DNA of 64,000 nucleotides from positions 1 to 64,000 of the forward strand of contig NZ_VJZZ01000019.1 in NCBI RefSeq assembly GCF_009659535.1, in the 5' to 3' direction. Below the pieces are notes generated by a model that saw only the letters and a program-made list of their open reading frames with translations, had not been told where the DNA came from and did no database searches. Below are positions 44,451 through 50,823 of this stretch, one piece after another; the first letter of the stretch is position 1, and each line of letters opens with the position of its first letter. A program made the translations under genes and the position numbers. The DNA is from Aggregicoccus sp. 17bor-14. Its GTDB lineage: Bacteria; Myxococcota; Myxococcia; Myxococcales; Myxococcaceae.

Positions 44451-44759
44451 GTGGCCGACCAGCTGGTGGAGCAGGGCGGGCGCGTGTTCTTCTCCGCCGA
44501 GCAAGGCCGCCAGGGCCGCCAGCTCTGGACGCTTCCCGTCGCGGTGCTCACGGACTTCACCGCGCCCGACCCTCGCTGCCCGGCGGACGTGGTGCTGGAC
44601 TCGCCCGCTGCCGAGGGTGCGGTCGCCACGTACGCGCCGTCGCAGAGCGCGGAGGCGGTGCAGCTGTCCTACAGCCAGGTCTCCGGCTCCCGCTTCGTGG
44701 TGGGGACGACGGCCGCGGAGGTGACGGCCCGCGACCTCAGCGGCAACAGCGCCCGGTGA
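44451..44759 (+). pseudogene. remnant of an ELWxxDGT/HYR-type surface protein
   Basis: An open frame of 102 codons that reads as the end of a larger protein. The start resembles an ELWxxDGT-type strand (GGRVFFSAEQGRQGRQLWTL), followed by a nearly complete HYR domain: CPADVVLDSPAAEGAVATY, later YSQVSGSRFVVGTT and the ending VTARDLSGNSA. HYR domains are repeated in long secreted adhesin-like proteins of myxobacteria. There is no signal peptide and no second domain, and the frame begins right after a terminator-like hairpin, so I read it as a truncated gene remnant. A short functional gene is a less likely reading. Its 3' end overlaps a minus-strand ORF. Confidence 0.6.
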
Positions 44760-44997
44760 GGCGCACGGCGAGGTTCTCCTCGGGGTGGTCCCAGGCCACG
44801 AGCTGCCCCGCGTTCATGGCCGCGACGCGCTTGCGCGTGAGGGACTCGCAGTCCCAGCCCGGCAGGTCCGTCGCGTCCGTGCGCACGTCGACGAGCGCCA
44901 TGTGCGCGGCGTCGTCCGAGATGCGCAGGACGATGTCCTGCGCGAGAGAATCGAGCGGGTCCGCGGGCAGGCTCTTCTTCTTGAACAGGCCGAACAT
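44737..44997 (-). CDS. small hypothetical protein, 86 aa
   Basis: An 86-residue protein starting MFGLFKKKSLPADPLDSLAQ, with a short basic N-terminal helix, then strand-like IVLRISDDAAHMALVDVRTD and the end AVRLTGRCCR. No signal or membrane segment is present. No family is recognised. The ribosome binding site is weak (GGGCGGGC), and the 3' end overlaps the HYR remnant by 23 bases on the other strand, so it may not be expressed as annotated. Confidence 0.45.
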   Translation of the reverse strand: MFGLFKKKSLPADPLDSLAQDIVLRISDDAAHMALVDVRTDATDLPGWDCESLTRKRVAAMNAGQLVAWDHPEENLAVRLTGRCCR

Positions 44998-45029: not shown

Positions 45030-47741
45030 TCAGGGCTGCGGCGCGGGAGGCGGGGTGCTGGGCACACTCTCCACGGCGACCCGCAGCTGCGGCAGCTCGG
45101 GGCGGAAGGGATCGTCGAGCACGGGCGTGTCGCCCCGCAGCCGCTTCTTGAGGCGCCGCACCTCCACCTGCTCCTGCTTCGCCTTGGCCACGAGCACGTC
45201 GGCCTCGGCGTTGCGCTTGCGCACCTCGGCCTCGCGGACGCCCTGCAGGTAGGGCTCGCACGCGTCGCAGGGCGAGAGGCGGGTCTGCAGGTGGATGCCG
45301 GGAGTGGGAAGCACCACGTCACTCACGCCACAGGGCGCATCGAGCGCGGTGTTCTGGCCCAGCACGCGCTCGAAGTACTGGCGCAGCGCGGGGGAGAGCG
45401 TGCGCTGCAGCGGGTAGGCGAGCAGCGCGCCCTCGCGGCCCAGCGGCCTCAGCTCGATGCCGGGCAGCTCGTAGCCCCGGCTGCGCAGCAGCTCGCGCTG
45501 CATGGCCAGGGGCATCGCGAGGAACACCCGCATCCGGTAGTACTCGCGGTGCTCGTTGAGGTGCGCGAGCAGCGCCTCCTCGCGCTCGAGCGAGGCCGCC
45601 ACCGTGGTGACCGGGTAGGCCGAGGCGACGGGGTCCTCGGCCGCCTCCTTCGCCGGCGACTGCACCGCGGCCACCAGCTCCTTGAGCGCCGCGGCCAGCC
45701 CCGCGTCCTGGCCGCTGAGGGACCACCAGCTGCGCAGCTGCGAGACGACCGCCGTCTTCCCACCCTGCGGCGCGGGGAAGCCCTCCTGGAGGTAGCGCGA
45801 GAAGATGCGGTCCTCGAGCGGGAGGCGCCACTTGAACACCAGCTTGTCCGGCCGCAGGTCGTCCGGGTTGCTTCCACCCAGCGCGCCCAGGAGGCTGCGC
45901 GTGGCGAGCAGCGTGTCCGAGCGGTCCAGCGTCGCCGGCGAGACGAGAAGCTCGTAGAGCGCACGGGACTCCTCGGCGAGCGCCAGCGTGTACAGCCACC
46001 GCTGCACGTCCGGCGCCAGCTTGGTGGGGTCGAAGACCGTGGCGTTGCTGTTGCCGCCGTGGTTGCCCAGGAGCGCGTCGATCCACGCCAGGGCCGTGCG
46101 GGGGTTGGCGGCGCGCAGGTCTCGCGCCGCGCCCTGCACCTTCGTCAGCGCGTCGGACACCGCGGGCGAGAGGAGCAGGGTCTTCGCGTCGCCGCACAGG
46201 CAGCGCTCGCACGCCACCTGACAGGCGAAGTCGCGTGCGGCGAGCAGCCGCGCCGCCGCGAAGCCCCCCTTCAGGGAGGCGTCCAGCAGCGCGGGTGAGA
46301 GGAGGCTCTCGTACTGCCGCAGCCGCGCCCGGTTGAAGGTCGTGAAGGGCAGCGGCAGCTCGACGAGCACGCAGGGGCGCGCCTCCGCCCGCAGGATGGT
46401 GGTGGTGATGCGGTAGTGGGACAGGACCTCGAAGGAGTCGACCGCCAGGCAGCGGCAGGTGTTGGGGTTGCGCACCCGGCGCGTCACCCGCTCCTCGCTC
46501 CCGATGTCCGAGCCCTCGCTCACCTTCACCTGCCGCGTGGCCTTGAGCTGGGCGGTGGACTTGACCACCACCTCGTGCAGGCCCGTGGTGGTGCTGCGCG
46601 CGGTGTCCGTGACCGAGCCTCCGTCGCTGAGGCCCCCGTTGACCCCCACGGTGAGCCCGTAGCCGGAGTAGCTGAGGTTGCCGCCCAGGTTGTTGCTCAG
46701 CTGGGAGGTGCGCACGAGCTCCTTGAGCACCTCGGTGGTGTCGCGCGAGGTGTCCGTGAACTCGCCGGTCGTCGTGGCCTCGGTGGAGGCGGTGTCCTCC
46801 GCGCTCGTGGTGTGCTTCTCCCAGGAGTGGACCTCGAGCGTCAGCTCCTCCTGGGGCGCGAGCGCCGCGGTGTGCAGCAGGGCGCCGCGGCTGTAGCCCA
46901 GCAGCTCCCACTCCTGCCGGATGGGCACGTAGAGGGCGACGGGGAGCGCGGCGAGCGCGGGCGCGGGGATGCCCTCGCCGGGCGGCGGCCTCGCGCTCCC
47001 GTTGGACTCGGAGACGGGCGCGGGCGTGCTGAGCGCCGCGTACTGGGCGAGCACGGGGCGTGAGGCCACGTCCAGCTCCACCGGCGCTCCGCCCACCTGC
47101 GTGCGCGTGTGCCCGGTGGCGAGCAGCTCGCGCCGCTGCGCCACGCTGAGCTTCACCTCCACGGAGCGACCGCCGCCCAGGCCCAGCACTGGACGCGCCA
47201 GGAAGGCGGGGAGGTCCGCGACGGCGAGTGACAGCGGACCGTCGTCGGCACCCGCCGCGGCCACCACCACCTCCACGTGGCGCTCGTGCCCCGCGCCGTC
47301 CACACCCCGCACCACCGCGGGCTGGCCACCGAGCAGCGCCCGGGCTGCGTCGGCGCTCAGCCGCAGGCGCAGCTGCTCCCCGTCCACCTCCAGGTGCTCC
47401 GAGGCCAGCAGGTCCGCGGCGGAGGCGACCTCCACCCGCGGCACCAGCGGCAGCAGGGACCTGCCGGGGCCGCCCTCGGCCAGGTGCTCCACGCTCACGC
47501 CGCCGCTCGCCGAGGCGTACGAGTGGAGGGTGCCGTCCGCGCGGCGGTGCAGCCCGCGGTCCACGTAGGTCGCCACGGTCGCCTTCGTGCCGCCGAAGGG
47601 GTTGAGCAGCACCGGCACGTCCAGGTCGCCGAGCCGGACGCTGAGCGGGATGAGCTGGCTGAGATCGTACCGGTCGACAATGGTGCCGACGGGCAGCGTG
47701 CGGTCGCACTCGTTGGCGAAGAGCTCGGGAACCAGGGCCAT
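45030..47741 (-). CDS. unassigned 903-residue protein of the accessory module
   Basis: A large soluble-looking protein. It has a strand-rich N-terminal half (for example YVPIRQEWELLGYSRGALLH) and a Ser/Thr-rich stretch at about residues 300-345 whose pattern begins SWEKHTTSAEDTAS. A beta-strand segment follows (NLGGNLSYSGYGLTVGVN), then the Cys-rich sites NTCRCLA (about 425), CQVACERCLCG (about 507) and SPCDACEPY (about 825), which may bind a metal. The C-terminal end has a basic coiled coil (AEADVLVAKAKQEQVEVRRL) and a Pro-rich tail. No signal peptide or catalytic motif is recognised. ATG 47741 follows GGGGAGGTG. It is divergent from the 580-residue gene across 77 bases and I do not know its family. 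Confidence 0.8.
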   Translation of the reverse strand: MALVPELFANECDRTLPVGTIVDRYDLSQLIPLSVRLGDLDVPVLLNPFGGTKATVATYVDRGLHRRADGTLHSYASASGGVSVEHLAEGGPGRSLLPLVPRVEVASAADLLASEHLEVDGEQLRLRLSADAARALLGGQPAVVRGVDGAGHERHVEVVVAAAGADDGPLSLAVADLPAFLARPVLGLGGGRSVEVKLSVAQRRELLATGHTRTQVGGAPVELDVASRPVLAQYAALSTPAPVSESNGSARPPPGEGIPAPALAALPVALYVPIRQEWELLGYSRGALLHTAALAPQEELTLEVHSWEKHTTSAEDTASTEATTTGEFTDTSRDTTEVLKELVRTSQLSNNLGGNLSYSGYGLTVGVNGGLSDGGSVTDTARSTTTGLHEVVVKSTAQLKATRQVKVSEGSDIGSEERVTRRVRNPNTCRCLAVDSFEVLSHYRITTTILRAEARPCVLVELPLPFTTFNRARLRQYESLLSPALLDASLKGGFAAARLLAARDFACQVACERCLCGDAKTLLLSPAVSDALTKVQGAARDLRAANPRTALAWIDALLGNHGGNSNATVFDPTKLAPDVQRWLYTLALAEESRALYELLVSPATLDRSDTLLATRSLLGALGGSNPDDLRPDKLVFKWRLPLEDRIFSRYLQEGFPAPQGGKTAVVSQLRSWWSLSGQDAGLAAALKELVAAVQSPAKEAAEDPVASAYPVTTVAASLEREEALLAHLNEHREYYRMRVFLAMPLAMQRELLRSRGYELPGIELRPLGREGALLAYPLQRTLSPALRQYFERVLGQNTALDAPCGVSDVVLPTPGIHLQTRLSPCDACEPYLQGVREAEVRKRNAEADVLVAKAKQEQVEVRRLKKRLRGDTPVLDDPFRPELPQLRVAVESVPSTPPPAPQP

Positions 47742-47818
47742 GGGCGCACCTCCCCGGGAGTTCACAAGCTAGTACCCGGGCGAAGCTCGCGAAGATTCCT
47801 GCTCTCGAGGGAAGCGCG
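47742..47818. promoter_or_regulatory. shared divergent promoter gap of the unassigned module
   Basis: Seventy-seven bases separate the start codons of the 903-residue (minus) and 580-residue (plus) genes. Both ribosome binding sites lie at its ends (GGGGAGGTG and GAGGGAAG). Each strand must start transcription within or overlapping this gap. No clear -35/-10 pair can be named. Confidence 0.5.
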
Positions 47819-49561
47819 ATGGTGGACCTGCAGGAGCTCGTCGTCGTCGTACCGCCGTCCGAGCCCGGCGCGCTCGACACGGATTCGCTCGACGACGCGA
47901 CCGCCGCGGCGCTCGAGGTGCCGGACCCTGCACTGGAGTCGCAGCCCGCCCCCGGCGAAACGCTCTGGATGGCGCTGCCCGTGGCCGGCACCCCGGTGCG
48001 CCTGGAGGTGCACCCGCTCGCGCTCGAGGGGCTGGTGGTGGACCGCTACTGCGCCGGCGGGTGGCGCGCCGTGAGCGAGCTGCGCGAGGCGGTGACCCAG
48101 GCGCTGCGGGCCGCGGACCCGTTCGAGGGGCGCTCCGAGGGGGAGGTCGAGCGCTCGGTCGCGCACGCCGTCGCCTTCGCGCGCCGGCTCGCAGCGGCGG
48201 TGGAGCTGCTCGAGCAGCTCGTGAAGGAGGCGCTGGTGCGCATCGCGGCGGACGCCCTGGCTGCCGCACGCGCGCGGATGGCGAAGCTCTCGCCCGTCCT
48301 GCAAGCACAGCGAGAGCGCTACGGGCTGGCGCCCGTGGAGGGGGCCGGCGGCGGCGAGGGGCGCTCCGGCAGCGACGCGCTCTACGCAGACAACCCGACC
48401 GTCGTGGTGCTCGGCGACCCCGCCCCGGCAAAGGCGCTCGCCCGCGCCGTGCAGGAGCTGGTGGCCGCCCACCGGGCCATCTACCTGACGCGCGCGGCCG
48501 AGCGCGGCTCGCAGCCGGGAGGCCTCGAGGCGGCGGGCGGAGCGCCGGGGCAGGACACCGCCTCCAAGGTGGACCCGATCGACGCGGCCGCCGAGGCGCG
48601 CATCGCCGAGGTCGAGCGCGCCTTCGTCGAGCTGAGCGGGCGGGTGACGCGGGGGCCGGAGGGCCACCTCCTCGCCCCCGCCGTGTTCGCGCTCGTGCGT
48701 GGGGAGCAGGTCTACGTGCGCGGCGAGGTGAGCGAGCAGGCCATCTGGAGCAAGGCGTACGTGTACCTGCGGGACGTGCCCCGGCTCCTCGACGCGGCCC
48801 TGCCCAAGGAGGATGGCGGCTACCCCTTCGCGGCGCTGCGGGAGCGGCTCGCCATCCCGCTCGCGGCGCTGCAGCTCGAGCGCCCGGCGGGGGCGCTCGA
48901 CTCGCCCGAGCTGCGCGCCTCGCTCTGGGCCTCCGAGCGGCAGCGCGGCTACGCCTACGAGCCGCTGGACGACGAGGCGCTCCTCGTGGCCCTGCACCGC
49001 GAGTACGCGGACCGGATGCTGGCGCGACCACCGCCCCGCGCCGAGGCCTCCCAGGAGGACTCGAGCGGCGAGCTCGAGGGGGCCTTCCGCTACCGCGTGC
49101 TCACCGAGCTGCTCAGGGTCCGCGACACGCGCGACCGCATCCGGGCCCTGCAGGCGGCCGCCGGGCAGAAGGCGCAGGAGACGCTGGACCGGGTCGCCGG
49201 CGTGCTCGGCCTGCTCGGGCTGGCCTTCCCGCCAGCCGAGGCCGCCAGCGCGCTGCTCGGCCTCTACGCCGCCGCCGGCAGTGCGCTCACGGCCATGCGG
49301 GAGATCGACGCGGCGAACCGGGCCATCGACGCGCAGGCAGCGGGGGCCCTGCTGGCCGGCGACAGCGCGCGCTACGCGCTGCTCATCTCCTCGCGGCCCT
49401 CGGTGGCCGGGGTGCTCCTCGAGATGCTCGGAGACCTCGCGGCCTTCCACGCCATCGGCCAGGTGTCGCGGGAGCTGGGCGTGGGGCTGCAGGTGTTCTT
49501 CGACCTCCAGGCGATCGCGCCGAGCCTGGAGGAGGTTCTCGGCACGGGCTCGGAGGGGTGA
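47819..49561 (+). CDS. unassigned 580-residue protein of the accessory module
   Basis: A mainly alpha-helical protein beginning MVDLQELVVVVPPSEPGALD. The strand-rich N-terminus (to about 85) is followed by helices (VERSVAHAVAFARRLAAAVE, LARAVQELVAAHRAIYLTRA). Near residues 455-490 lies a hydrophobic helical hairpin (VLGLLGLAFPPAEAASALLG) that could be membrane-active, followed by charged helices ending LEEVLGTGSEG. No signal peptide is present and I do not recognise the family. GAGGGAAG precedes the ATG. Its stop overlaps the next ATG (TGATG), so the two genes are translationally coupled. Confidence 0.8.
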   Translation: MVDLQELVVVVPPSEPGALDTDSLDDATAAALEVPDPALESQPAPGETLWMALPVAGTPVRLEVHPLALEGLVVDRYCAGGWRAVSELREAVTQALRAADPFEGRSEGEVERSVAHAVAFARRLAAAVELLEQLVKEALVRIAADALAAARARMAKLSPVLQAQRERYGLAPVEGAGGGEGRSGSDALYADNPTVVVLGDPAPAKALARAVQELVAAHRAIYLTRAAERGSQPGGLEAAGGAPGQDTASKVDPIDAAAEARIAEVERAFVELSGRVTRGPEGHLLAPAVFALVRGEQVYVRGEVSEQAIWSKAYVYLRDVPRLLDAALPKEDGGYPFAALRERLAIPLAALQLERPAGALDSPELRASLWASERQRGYAYEPLDDEALLVALHREYADRMLARPPPRAEASQEDSSGELEGAFRYRVLTELLRVRDTRDRIRALQAAAGQKAQETLDRVAGVLGLLGLAFPPAEAASALLGLYAAAGSALTAMREIDAANRAIDAQAAGALLAGDSARYALLISSRPSVAGVLLEMLGDLAAFHAIGQVSRELGVGLQVFFDLQAIAPSLEEVLGTGSEG

Positions 49562-50823
49562 TGGCAGCGAAGGCGCGCAGGAAGCGCATCCTCGATCAGC
49601 AGCAAGCGGAGATCGGCGCAGTGCTCCTGCGCGAGCTGCGCGAGCTTGCGCCGTCCGAGCTGCGCGCGAGCCTCGCCGCCGCGACGAAGCAGGACGTGCG
49701 CGACTTCGACGAGGTGGTGCGCGAGCTGCGCAAGTCCGCGCGGCGGGAGGGCCTCAACCGCGCGCTCGCGCAGCACGTGCTGCAGGACCCGGTGTCGTCG
49801 ATTCTCGGCCGCGTCGAGCGGGAGGGTGCGGCCGGTGCGAAGAGCAAGAGCGCGCGGGAGGCGAGCGCGCTCGCGGGCGCGGCCGAGCTCAAGCCGCGCT
49901 ACGCCGTCGTCTCCCCCGCCACGGTGGCCCGCTTCGTCGAGGTCATCGAGGACAAGCACCCGGACATCGTGCGTGAGCTCAAGCGGCTGGGGCTGCGGAC
50001 GGAGGAGGGGACCGAGCTGCTGCTGCGCATCCTCGACTACTCGAAGGAGCGCCGAGCGGCGGGCTTCAAGCGGCGCGTGCGCGGCCGCGGCGGCATCCTC
50101 TACGAGATGCTGCTGTCCTTCCAGCCGGACGTGGTGGCAAAGGAGCGCGCCGCGGCGAGCGTGAACGCGAGCGAGTGGATCCTGCGTGAGCCGGAGCGCT
50201 TCGGGACGGACAAGAAGGGCGCTCCAGCGCTCGTCGAGCGCGCGCAGGAGCGGCTGCGCGACGCGGAGGGTGCGAAGTCCGGCCTCGGGCGGGGGCTGCT
50301 GCGGGAGGACGGAACGCCCCGCTTCGGGGAGCTCGAGCGGCTCGAGGAGAACCTCTTCCTGCTGCGCCTCACGGACGTGCGGGACGAGAGTGGGCGGCTG
50401 ATGAGCGACCACTTCCGCGTGCTGCTCTCCTTCTCTCGAGACCGCAAGACCCTCGAACTGGTGCCCGTGGGGGTGGGCGAGTCCAAGTTCCAGAGCAAGG
50501 TACGGGAGATCATCCCCCAGCTGATCCGCAACCTCGAGCGCGCGCAGGAGACCCTGCGCGCCTCGAACCTGCCCCACCTGGAGGGGGTCGACATCCAGGT
50601 GCGCTGGGGCAAGGCGCTGGTGGTCGTCGCGCAGTCCGAGAAGGCCGTCTCACCCCGGCAGCTCGCGGGGCTCGAGGACAAGGTGCGCGAGGCCACCGGC
50701 GCGCTGCAGCTGAAGGTGAGCGTGGCGGAGGGCGCCACCGCGAAGCAGGCCCAGGCGTCGAAGGACGTGGTGGATAAGTTCATGCGCCTCGCCGCCCTGA
50801 AGAACCTCGGCGTGGAGGAGTGA
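49561..50823 (+). CDS. unassigned 420-residue protein of the accessory module
   Basis: A basic, mixed helix/strand protein. An N-terminal helical part (AKARRKRILDQQQAEIGAVL) is followed by an alternating part with LKRLGLRTEEGTELLLRILD. The middle has GGILYEMLLSFQPDVVAKER, and later come HFRVLLSFSRDRKTLELVPV, VGVGESKFQSKVREIIPQLI and ALVVVAQSEKAV. The Glu-x-Lys in GESK after a strand vaguely recalls the PD-(D/E)xK nuclease fold, but the preceding Asp is not obvious, so this is only a hint. No signal or membrane segment is present. It overlaps the upstream gene by one base and ends two bases before the convergent receptor's stop. Confidence 0.8.
   Translation: MAAKARRKRILDQQQAEIGAVLLRELRELAPSELRASLAAATKQDVRDFDEVVRELRKSARREGLNRALAQHVLQDPVSSILGRVEREGAAGAKSKSAREASALAGAAELKPRYAVVSPATVARFVEVIEDKHPDIVRELKRLGLRTEEGTELLLRILDYSKERRAAGFKRRVRGRGGILYEMLLSFQPDVVAKERAAASVNASEWILREPERFGTDKKGAPALVERAQERLRDAEGAKSGLGRGLLREDGTPRFGELERLEENLFLLRLTDVRDESGRLMSDHFRVLLSFSRDRKTLELVPVGVGESKFQSKVREIIPQLIRNLERAQETLRASNLPHLEGVDIQVRWGKALVVVAQSEKAVSPRQLAGLEDKVREATGALQLKVSVAEGATAKQAQASKDVVDKFMRLAALKNLGVEE

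What the first reader, a model, noticed from the sequence alone, without database searches (positions are those of the whole stretch)
45030..50823. Three-gene module of unassigned large proteins (903, 580 and 420 aa)
Two plus-strand genes that overlap by one base and a minus-strand gene diverge from a 77-bp gap. None has a motif I can place. The 903-aa protein has a strand-rich core, a Ser/Thr-rich stretch and three Cys clusters; the 580-aa one has a hydrophobic hairpin that could insert into membranes; the 420-aa one has a possible GExK nuclease-like motif. Decayed fragments flank the module. Together they look like a self-contained accessory system, such as a toxin, delivery or defence unit.
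Basis: partly seen in the sequence, partly recalled or inferred. Interest (0 to 1): 0.8.

Follow-up and report, generated by a model that had tools for sequence, protein, structure and literature searches.

The report
Rare three-gene module, probable toxin-like effector
Three adjacent genes of no known protein family travel together in four distantly related bacteria; one belongs to a large family of proteins with swappable enzyme ends, so the set looks like an undescribed toxin-like effector, though no activity has been shown.

Summary
A (903 aa, minus strand), B (580 aa) and C (420 aa, one-base overlap with B) are real genes (third-position GC 94-97%). None matches Pfam, NCBIfam, PHROGs, PADLOC or PDB sequences convincingly. 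All four have a B relative next door; three have a C-position gene, and in the fourth B carries an extra ~440 aa. Among 195 genomes of the window's phylum only this one has full-length A. A's central domain recurs in a larger family without a Pfam/NCBIfam model (44 genes in 41 loci) whose C-terminal ends are swapped: AvrRpt2-like protease, amidase, PETase-like, beta-lactamase-like. B has a conserved N-terminal motif and hydrophobic hairpin; C is hypervariable, with a weak D...ExK-like pattern. Best reading: a three-part polymorphic effector (A carrier, B membrane insertion, C enzyme), confidence about 0.4. No immunity gene or delivery machine was found. In S. mesophilus the trio follows an encapsulin gene in one tight operon, a single but striking case. 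AlphaFold models were unusable.

The parts
45030..47741 (-). Gene A, 903 aa; carrier/scaffold candidate
47067..47438 (-). A residues 102-225: only part of the A model with middling confidence (pLDDT ~45-69), repeating strand-helix-strand units
   Evidence: inference
46242..46958 (-). A residues 262-500: core domain shared with the wider family
45234..45587 (-). A residues 719-836: conserved HLNxHRxYY ... PTPG ... CxxCE region
47742..47818 (.). 77-bp intergenic gap between divergent A and B; no sigma-70 match
47819..49561 (+). Gene B, 580 aa; membrane-insertion candidate
47993..48091 (+). B residues 59-91: conserved N-terminal motif with GGWRAV
49202..49459 (+). B residues 462-547: hydrophobic hairpin region
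49561..50823 (+). Gene C, 420 aa; variable enzyme candidate
50407..50487 (+). C residues D283...E307-S-K309: weak nuclease-like pattern
   Evidence: by eye

Best explanation
A, B and C are one horizontally spread gene module that most likely makes a three-part, polymorphic-toxin-like effector. A would be the carrier or scaffold, built on the same core as a wide family in which that core is followed by different hydrolase domains. In this module the enzyme end is not fused to A but supplied by the separate genes B and C. B would dock to A or C through its conserved N-terminal motif and put its hydrophobic hairpin into the target membrane. C, the most variable gene, would be the enzyme, possibly a nuclease. 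Shown: real genes, co-location in four distant genomes, the shared A core with varied C-terminal enzymes, hydrophobic segments in B. Inferred: a physical complex, membrane insertion, enzymatic activity, and that the target is another cell.
For: Co-location in four genomes of distant lineages. B relatives are each other's top matches against 250 real genes. A core in 44 genes of 41 loci with varied C-terminal enzymes: Peptidase_C70, Amidase_6, PETase-like, Beta-lactamase2. C sequence is not conserved although its place is, as expected of a swapped effector. Sporadic distribution: 1 of 195 genomes of the phylum, 2 of 395 genomes of the class of G195; a megaplasmid and a Tn3 transposase nearby in G327 suggest mobility.
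Against: No immunity gene, signal peptide, known trafficking domain or secretion machine was found beside the trio. No enzyme domain is demonstrated in C. The trio's own A lacks the C-terminal enzyme seen in the wider family. Folding failed.
Confidence: 0.4

Rival explanations
1. Intracellular phage-defence module: A senses infection, B acts on the membrane and C on nucleic acid, killing or arresting the infected cell.
For: Sparse, mobile distribution; no immunity gene or signal peptide needed; membrane segment plus a possible nuclease is a common defence layout (general knowledge).
Against: No PADLOC hit of weight; no known defence genes recognised beside the four loci; A's relatives carry protease, amidase and PETase-like ends, which fit an outward-acting effector better.
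Confidence: 0.2
2. Encapsulin-associated system: A, B and/or C are cargo or partners of a capsid-like protein shell.
For: In S. mesophilus a family-1 encapsulin gene lies 3 bases upstream of A in one operon with B and C. The window genome also encodes an encapsulin, on another contig.
Against: No encapsulin in G327 or on the Miltoncostaea plasmid; none near other A-core loci examined; no targeting-peptide-like motif at the ends of S. mesophilus A, B or C.
Confidence: 0.12
3. Non-toxic structural or developmental system: A, B and C form a large complex with a membrane anchor and no killing role.
For: No toxin activity is shown; no immunity gene is present; A-core proteins are frequent in Streptomyces (30 of 395 genomes), a developing genus.
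Against: Hypervariable C and swapped enzyme ends on A-core proteins suggest diversifying conflict; very sporadic presence.
Confidence: 0.2
4. No system: three unrelated orphan genes that happen to be neighbours.
For: A is divergent from B and C in the window; B and C had no detectable relatives in 144 related genomes by single-sequence search.
Against: A+B recur together in four distant genomes, with the C position kept in three and an extended B in the fourth.
Confidence: 0.05

Closest known systems
Polymorphic toxin systems (review PMC3482391, listed; not read in full)
   Same: Constant core with interchangeable C-terminal enzyme domains in A's wider family; variable effector position; hydrophobic pre-effector segment.
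   Different: Enzyme is in separate genes here; no immunity gene, no known trafficking or pre-toxin domain, no Pfam match.
Family-1 encapsulin operons (PMC8346489)
   Same: S. mesophilus trio sits directly behind an encapsulin gene.
   Different: Window, G327 and Miltoncostaea loci lack it; no targeting peptide; none of the cargo classes named in the passages read resembles A, B or C.
Extracellular contractile injection system cargo
   Same: S. mesophilus has sheath-like genes elsewhere in its genome; the own genome has one eCIS_core protein.
   Different: No sheath match in the own genome or G327; the module is not known to lie near such genes.
Anti-phage defence systems (PADLOC)
   Same: Sporadic, mobile, multi-gene, with a membrane component.
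   Different: No matching model and no defence-gene neighbourhood recognised.

Membership tests
Polymorphic toxin system | Conserved N-terminal region with diverse, exchangeable C-terminal toxin domains | tested here: inconclusive
   Met for the wider A-core family; for the trio itself the variable part is a separate gene (C)
Polymorphic toxin system | Immunity gene directly downstream | tested here: not met
   C runs into a convergent TonB receptor; A is followed by a truncated ORF whose intact relative lies elsewhere
Polymorphic toxin system | Known trafficking or pre-toxin domain | tested here: not met
   No Pfam or NCBIfam domain in A, B or C
Polymorphic toxin system | Toxic activity | not testable with these tools
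   Needs an experiment
Encapsulin cargo system | Encapsulin shell gene in the same operon | tested here: inconclusive
   Present in S. mesophilus, absent from the window locus; none in G327 or the Miltoncostaea plasmid
Encapsulin cargo system | Targeting peptide at a cargo terminus | tested here: not met
   No such motif at the termini of S. mesophilus A, B or C (simple pattern only)
PD-(D/E)XK nuclease (gene C) | Restriction-endonuclease fold with D...ExK | tested here: inconclusive
   D283...E307-x-K309 present; homology across C not significant; model unusable
Known anti-phage defence system | Match to a described defence protein | tested here: not met
   PADLOC, best E 0.64
Known anti-phage defence system | Protection against phage | not testable with these tools
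   Needs an experiment

The most novel reading that the evidence does not exclude
A capsid-derived shell (encapsulin) and a three-part effector (A, B, C) form one system in which a protein nanocompartment stores, assembles or delivers a toxin-like enzyme; the window's copy has lost the linked shell gene or uses the genome's other encapsulin.
Probability: 0.1. Interest if true: 0.9.

Novelty: new variant of a known kind. Interest (0 to 1): 0.55.

Why it matters
It defines three protein families with no entry in the four family libraries searched, and links one of them to a large family, also without a Pfam or NCBIfam model, of proteins with swappable enzyme ends in Streptomyces, Nostoc, Burkholderiales and the window's phylum. 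If the effector reading is right, standard annotation misses this class of weapon or defence entirely, and the S. mesophilus encapsulin operon offers a direct way to test whether capsid-like shells handle effectors.

Tried and rejected
Chance ORFs: rejected by codon-position GC. Phage origin: no match to A or C in phage records, no relative of A in viral contigs. B and C in 144 related genomes and in plasmids by single-sequence search: nothing. AlphaFold of A with one relative (pLDDT 34) and of C alone (pLDDT 39): unusable; Foldseek best E-values 0.025 and 0.17 with low TM-scores. Homology of C between loci: ranks 5-32 of 251, not significant. Cargo of a contractile injection system: no sheath match in the own genome. 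A sliding-window search for internal repeats in A was spoiled by overlapping windows and is not used. Immunity role for the 86-aa neighbour: set aside, its relative is a 180-aa protein in a different setting.

Full report
What is there. The window holds three genes as described: A (45030-47741, minus, 903 aa), B (47819-49561, plus, 580 aa) and C (49561-50823, plus, 420 aa). Third-position GC of 94-97% with second-position GC of 44-51% marks all three as coding; the rival ORFs in other frames do not show it. A and B diverge from a 77-bp gap; B and C overlap by one base. Composition is even across the region and no tRNA was found in the window, so there is no compositional sign of a recent island. 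On the left lie a truncated 86-aa ORF that matches an intact 180-aa protein in genome G025 and a 102-aa ORF with a weak HYR remnant; beyond is an M20 peptidase. On the right is a TonB-dependent receptor.

Known families. None of the three proteins has a meaningful match in Pfam, PHROGs, NCBIfam or PADLOC, and sequence searches of solved structures found nothing convincing.

Relatives of A. A search of 144 related genomes found no other full-length A, only a shared central region (residues ~273-492), mostly in proteins of 1200-1800 aa. A profile search of 195 genomes of the phylum gave the same answer. Outside it, full-length relatives were found on a Miltoncostaea oceani megaplasmid (27-31% identity in aligned stretches), in Streptomyces mesophilus and in genome G327, drawn from the class of the S. 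mesophilus genome.

The trio recurs. In S. mesophilus the order on one strand is A, B (604 aa), C (418 aa), with a one-base A-B overlap and a four-base B-C overlap. In G327 it is A, B (478 aa), C (549 aa), B and C sharing one base as in the window. In Miltoncostaea A is followed by one 947-aa protein, about the length of B plus C. B of the window and of S. mesophilus share a 33-residue stretch with 16 identities (z = 7 against shuffles). To guard against the Ala-rich composition, each B was compared with 250 real neighbouring genes: window-S. mesophilus and window-Miltoncostaea are mutual first ranks, and G327-Miltoncostaea ranks 1 and 2. All four B proteins carry hydrophobic stretches in or near their B-like C-terminal part. 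The C proteins cannot be shown to be related (ranks 5-32 of 251). By eye, the three C sequences share an Asp followed 19-26 residues later by ESK, ESR or QFK; this is a lead, not a result.

The wider A family. The A core, usually with a downstream HLNxxxxYY...PTxGVFAEA...CNxCE region, was found in 44 genes of 41 loci examined: in Streptomyces (30 of 395 genomes of the S. mesophilus family), other actinomycetes, the window's phylum, Caballeronia, Paraburkholderia and Nostoc. The C-terminal ends differ: AvrRpt2-like peptidase C70, Amidase_6, PETase-like, Beta-lactamase2; others carry tectonin or leucine-rich repeats. Outside the trio their neighbourhoods share little. Swapped enzyme ends on a constant core are a hallmark of polymorphic effectors; this is the main ground for the proposed mechanism.

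The encapsulin link. The gene directly upstream of A in S. mesophilus encodes a divergent family-1 encapsulin (PF04454, E = 3.9e-23; about 28% identical to plasmid-borne encapsulins); three bases separate its stop codon from the A start. The window's genome has an encapsulin on another contig; G327 and the Miltoncostaea plasmid have none. No targeting-peptide-like motif was found at the ends of S. mesophilus A, B or C. A survey of encapsulins (PMC8346489) leaves 90 family-1 systems unassigned to an operon type; no operon of this kind is described in the passages read. One case is not enough to make it part of the system.

Mechanism. Shown: the genes, the recurring module, the shared core, the hydrophobic segments. 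Inferred: A is the carrier, B inserts into a membrane, C is the enzyme. Missing for a formal polymorphic toxin: immunity gene, trafficking domain, activity. Hence 'works like' is proposed at about 0.4 and 'is a member' is not claimed. Defence, encapsulin cargo and a structural role remain open.

Limits. Structure prediction failed for lack of alignment depth and fold searches were empty. Genome searches covered a sample (at most 1789 genome look-ups, with repeats), so more copies of the module surely exist; only four are known here.

Noticed in passing
L023:8672-9535 (+): Divergent family-1 encapsulin gene of S. mesophilus directly upstream of the A-B-C genes; possible new encapsulin operon type.
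   Followed up: partly
L059:8671-18560, L061:1469-11221, L102:6627-16454, L060:7749-13366: Two A-core genes in tandem in four actinomycete-class genomes; in L059 the second carries an AvrRpt2-like protease domain.
   Followed up: no
window A residues C429 and C828; alignment A6 of the A-core family: Cysteine at the core NxNxCH site mostly goes with the CNxCE site in the C-terminal region, and is mostly lost with it (tectonin group has NHMH with no CxxC; S. mesophilus A is an exception); possible disulfide or metal link between the two regions.
   Followed up: partly
L109-L115, A-core genes, C-terminal ~200 aa: A conserved end (IEWENVVTFLYSYFWD ... YDDRNYPGIPPANP ... WNEYTPTSGTDI) shared by ~900-1050 aa A-core proteins, also seen in L064; no Pfam model found.
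   Followed up: no
L058:1033-4095 (+): Tn3-family transposase about 2.4 kb upstream of the trio in G327, a hint of mobility.
   Followed up: no
window 44737-44997 (-): 86-aa ORF just downstream of A, truncated against a 180-aa relative in G025; family unknown.
   Followed up: partly
G000:C21:1943-2152 (L128): An eCIS_core (PF13699) protein in a genome where no contractile sheath (PF04984) match was found.
   Followed up: no
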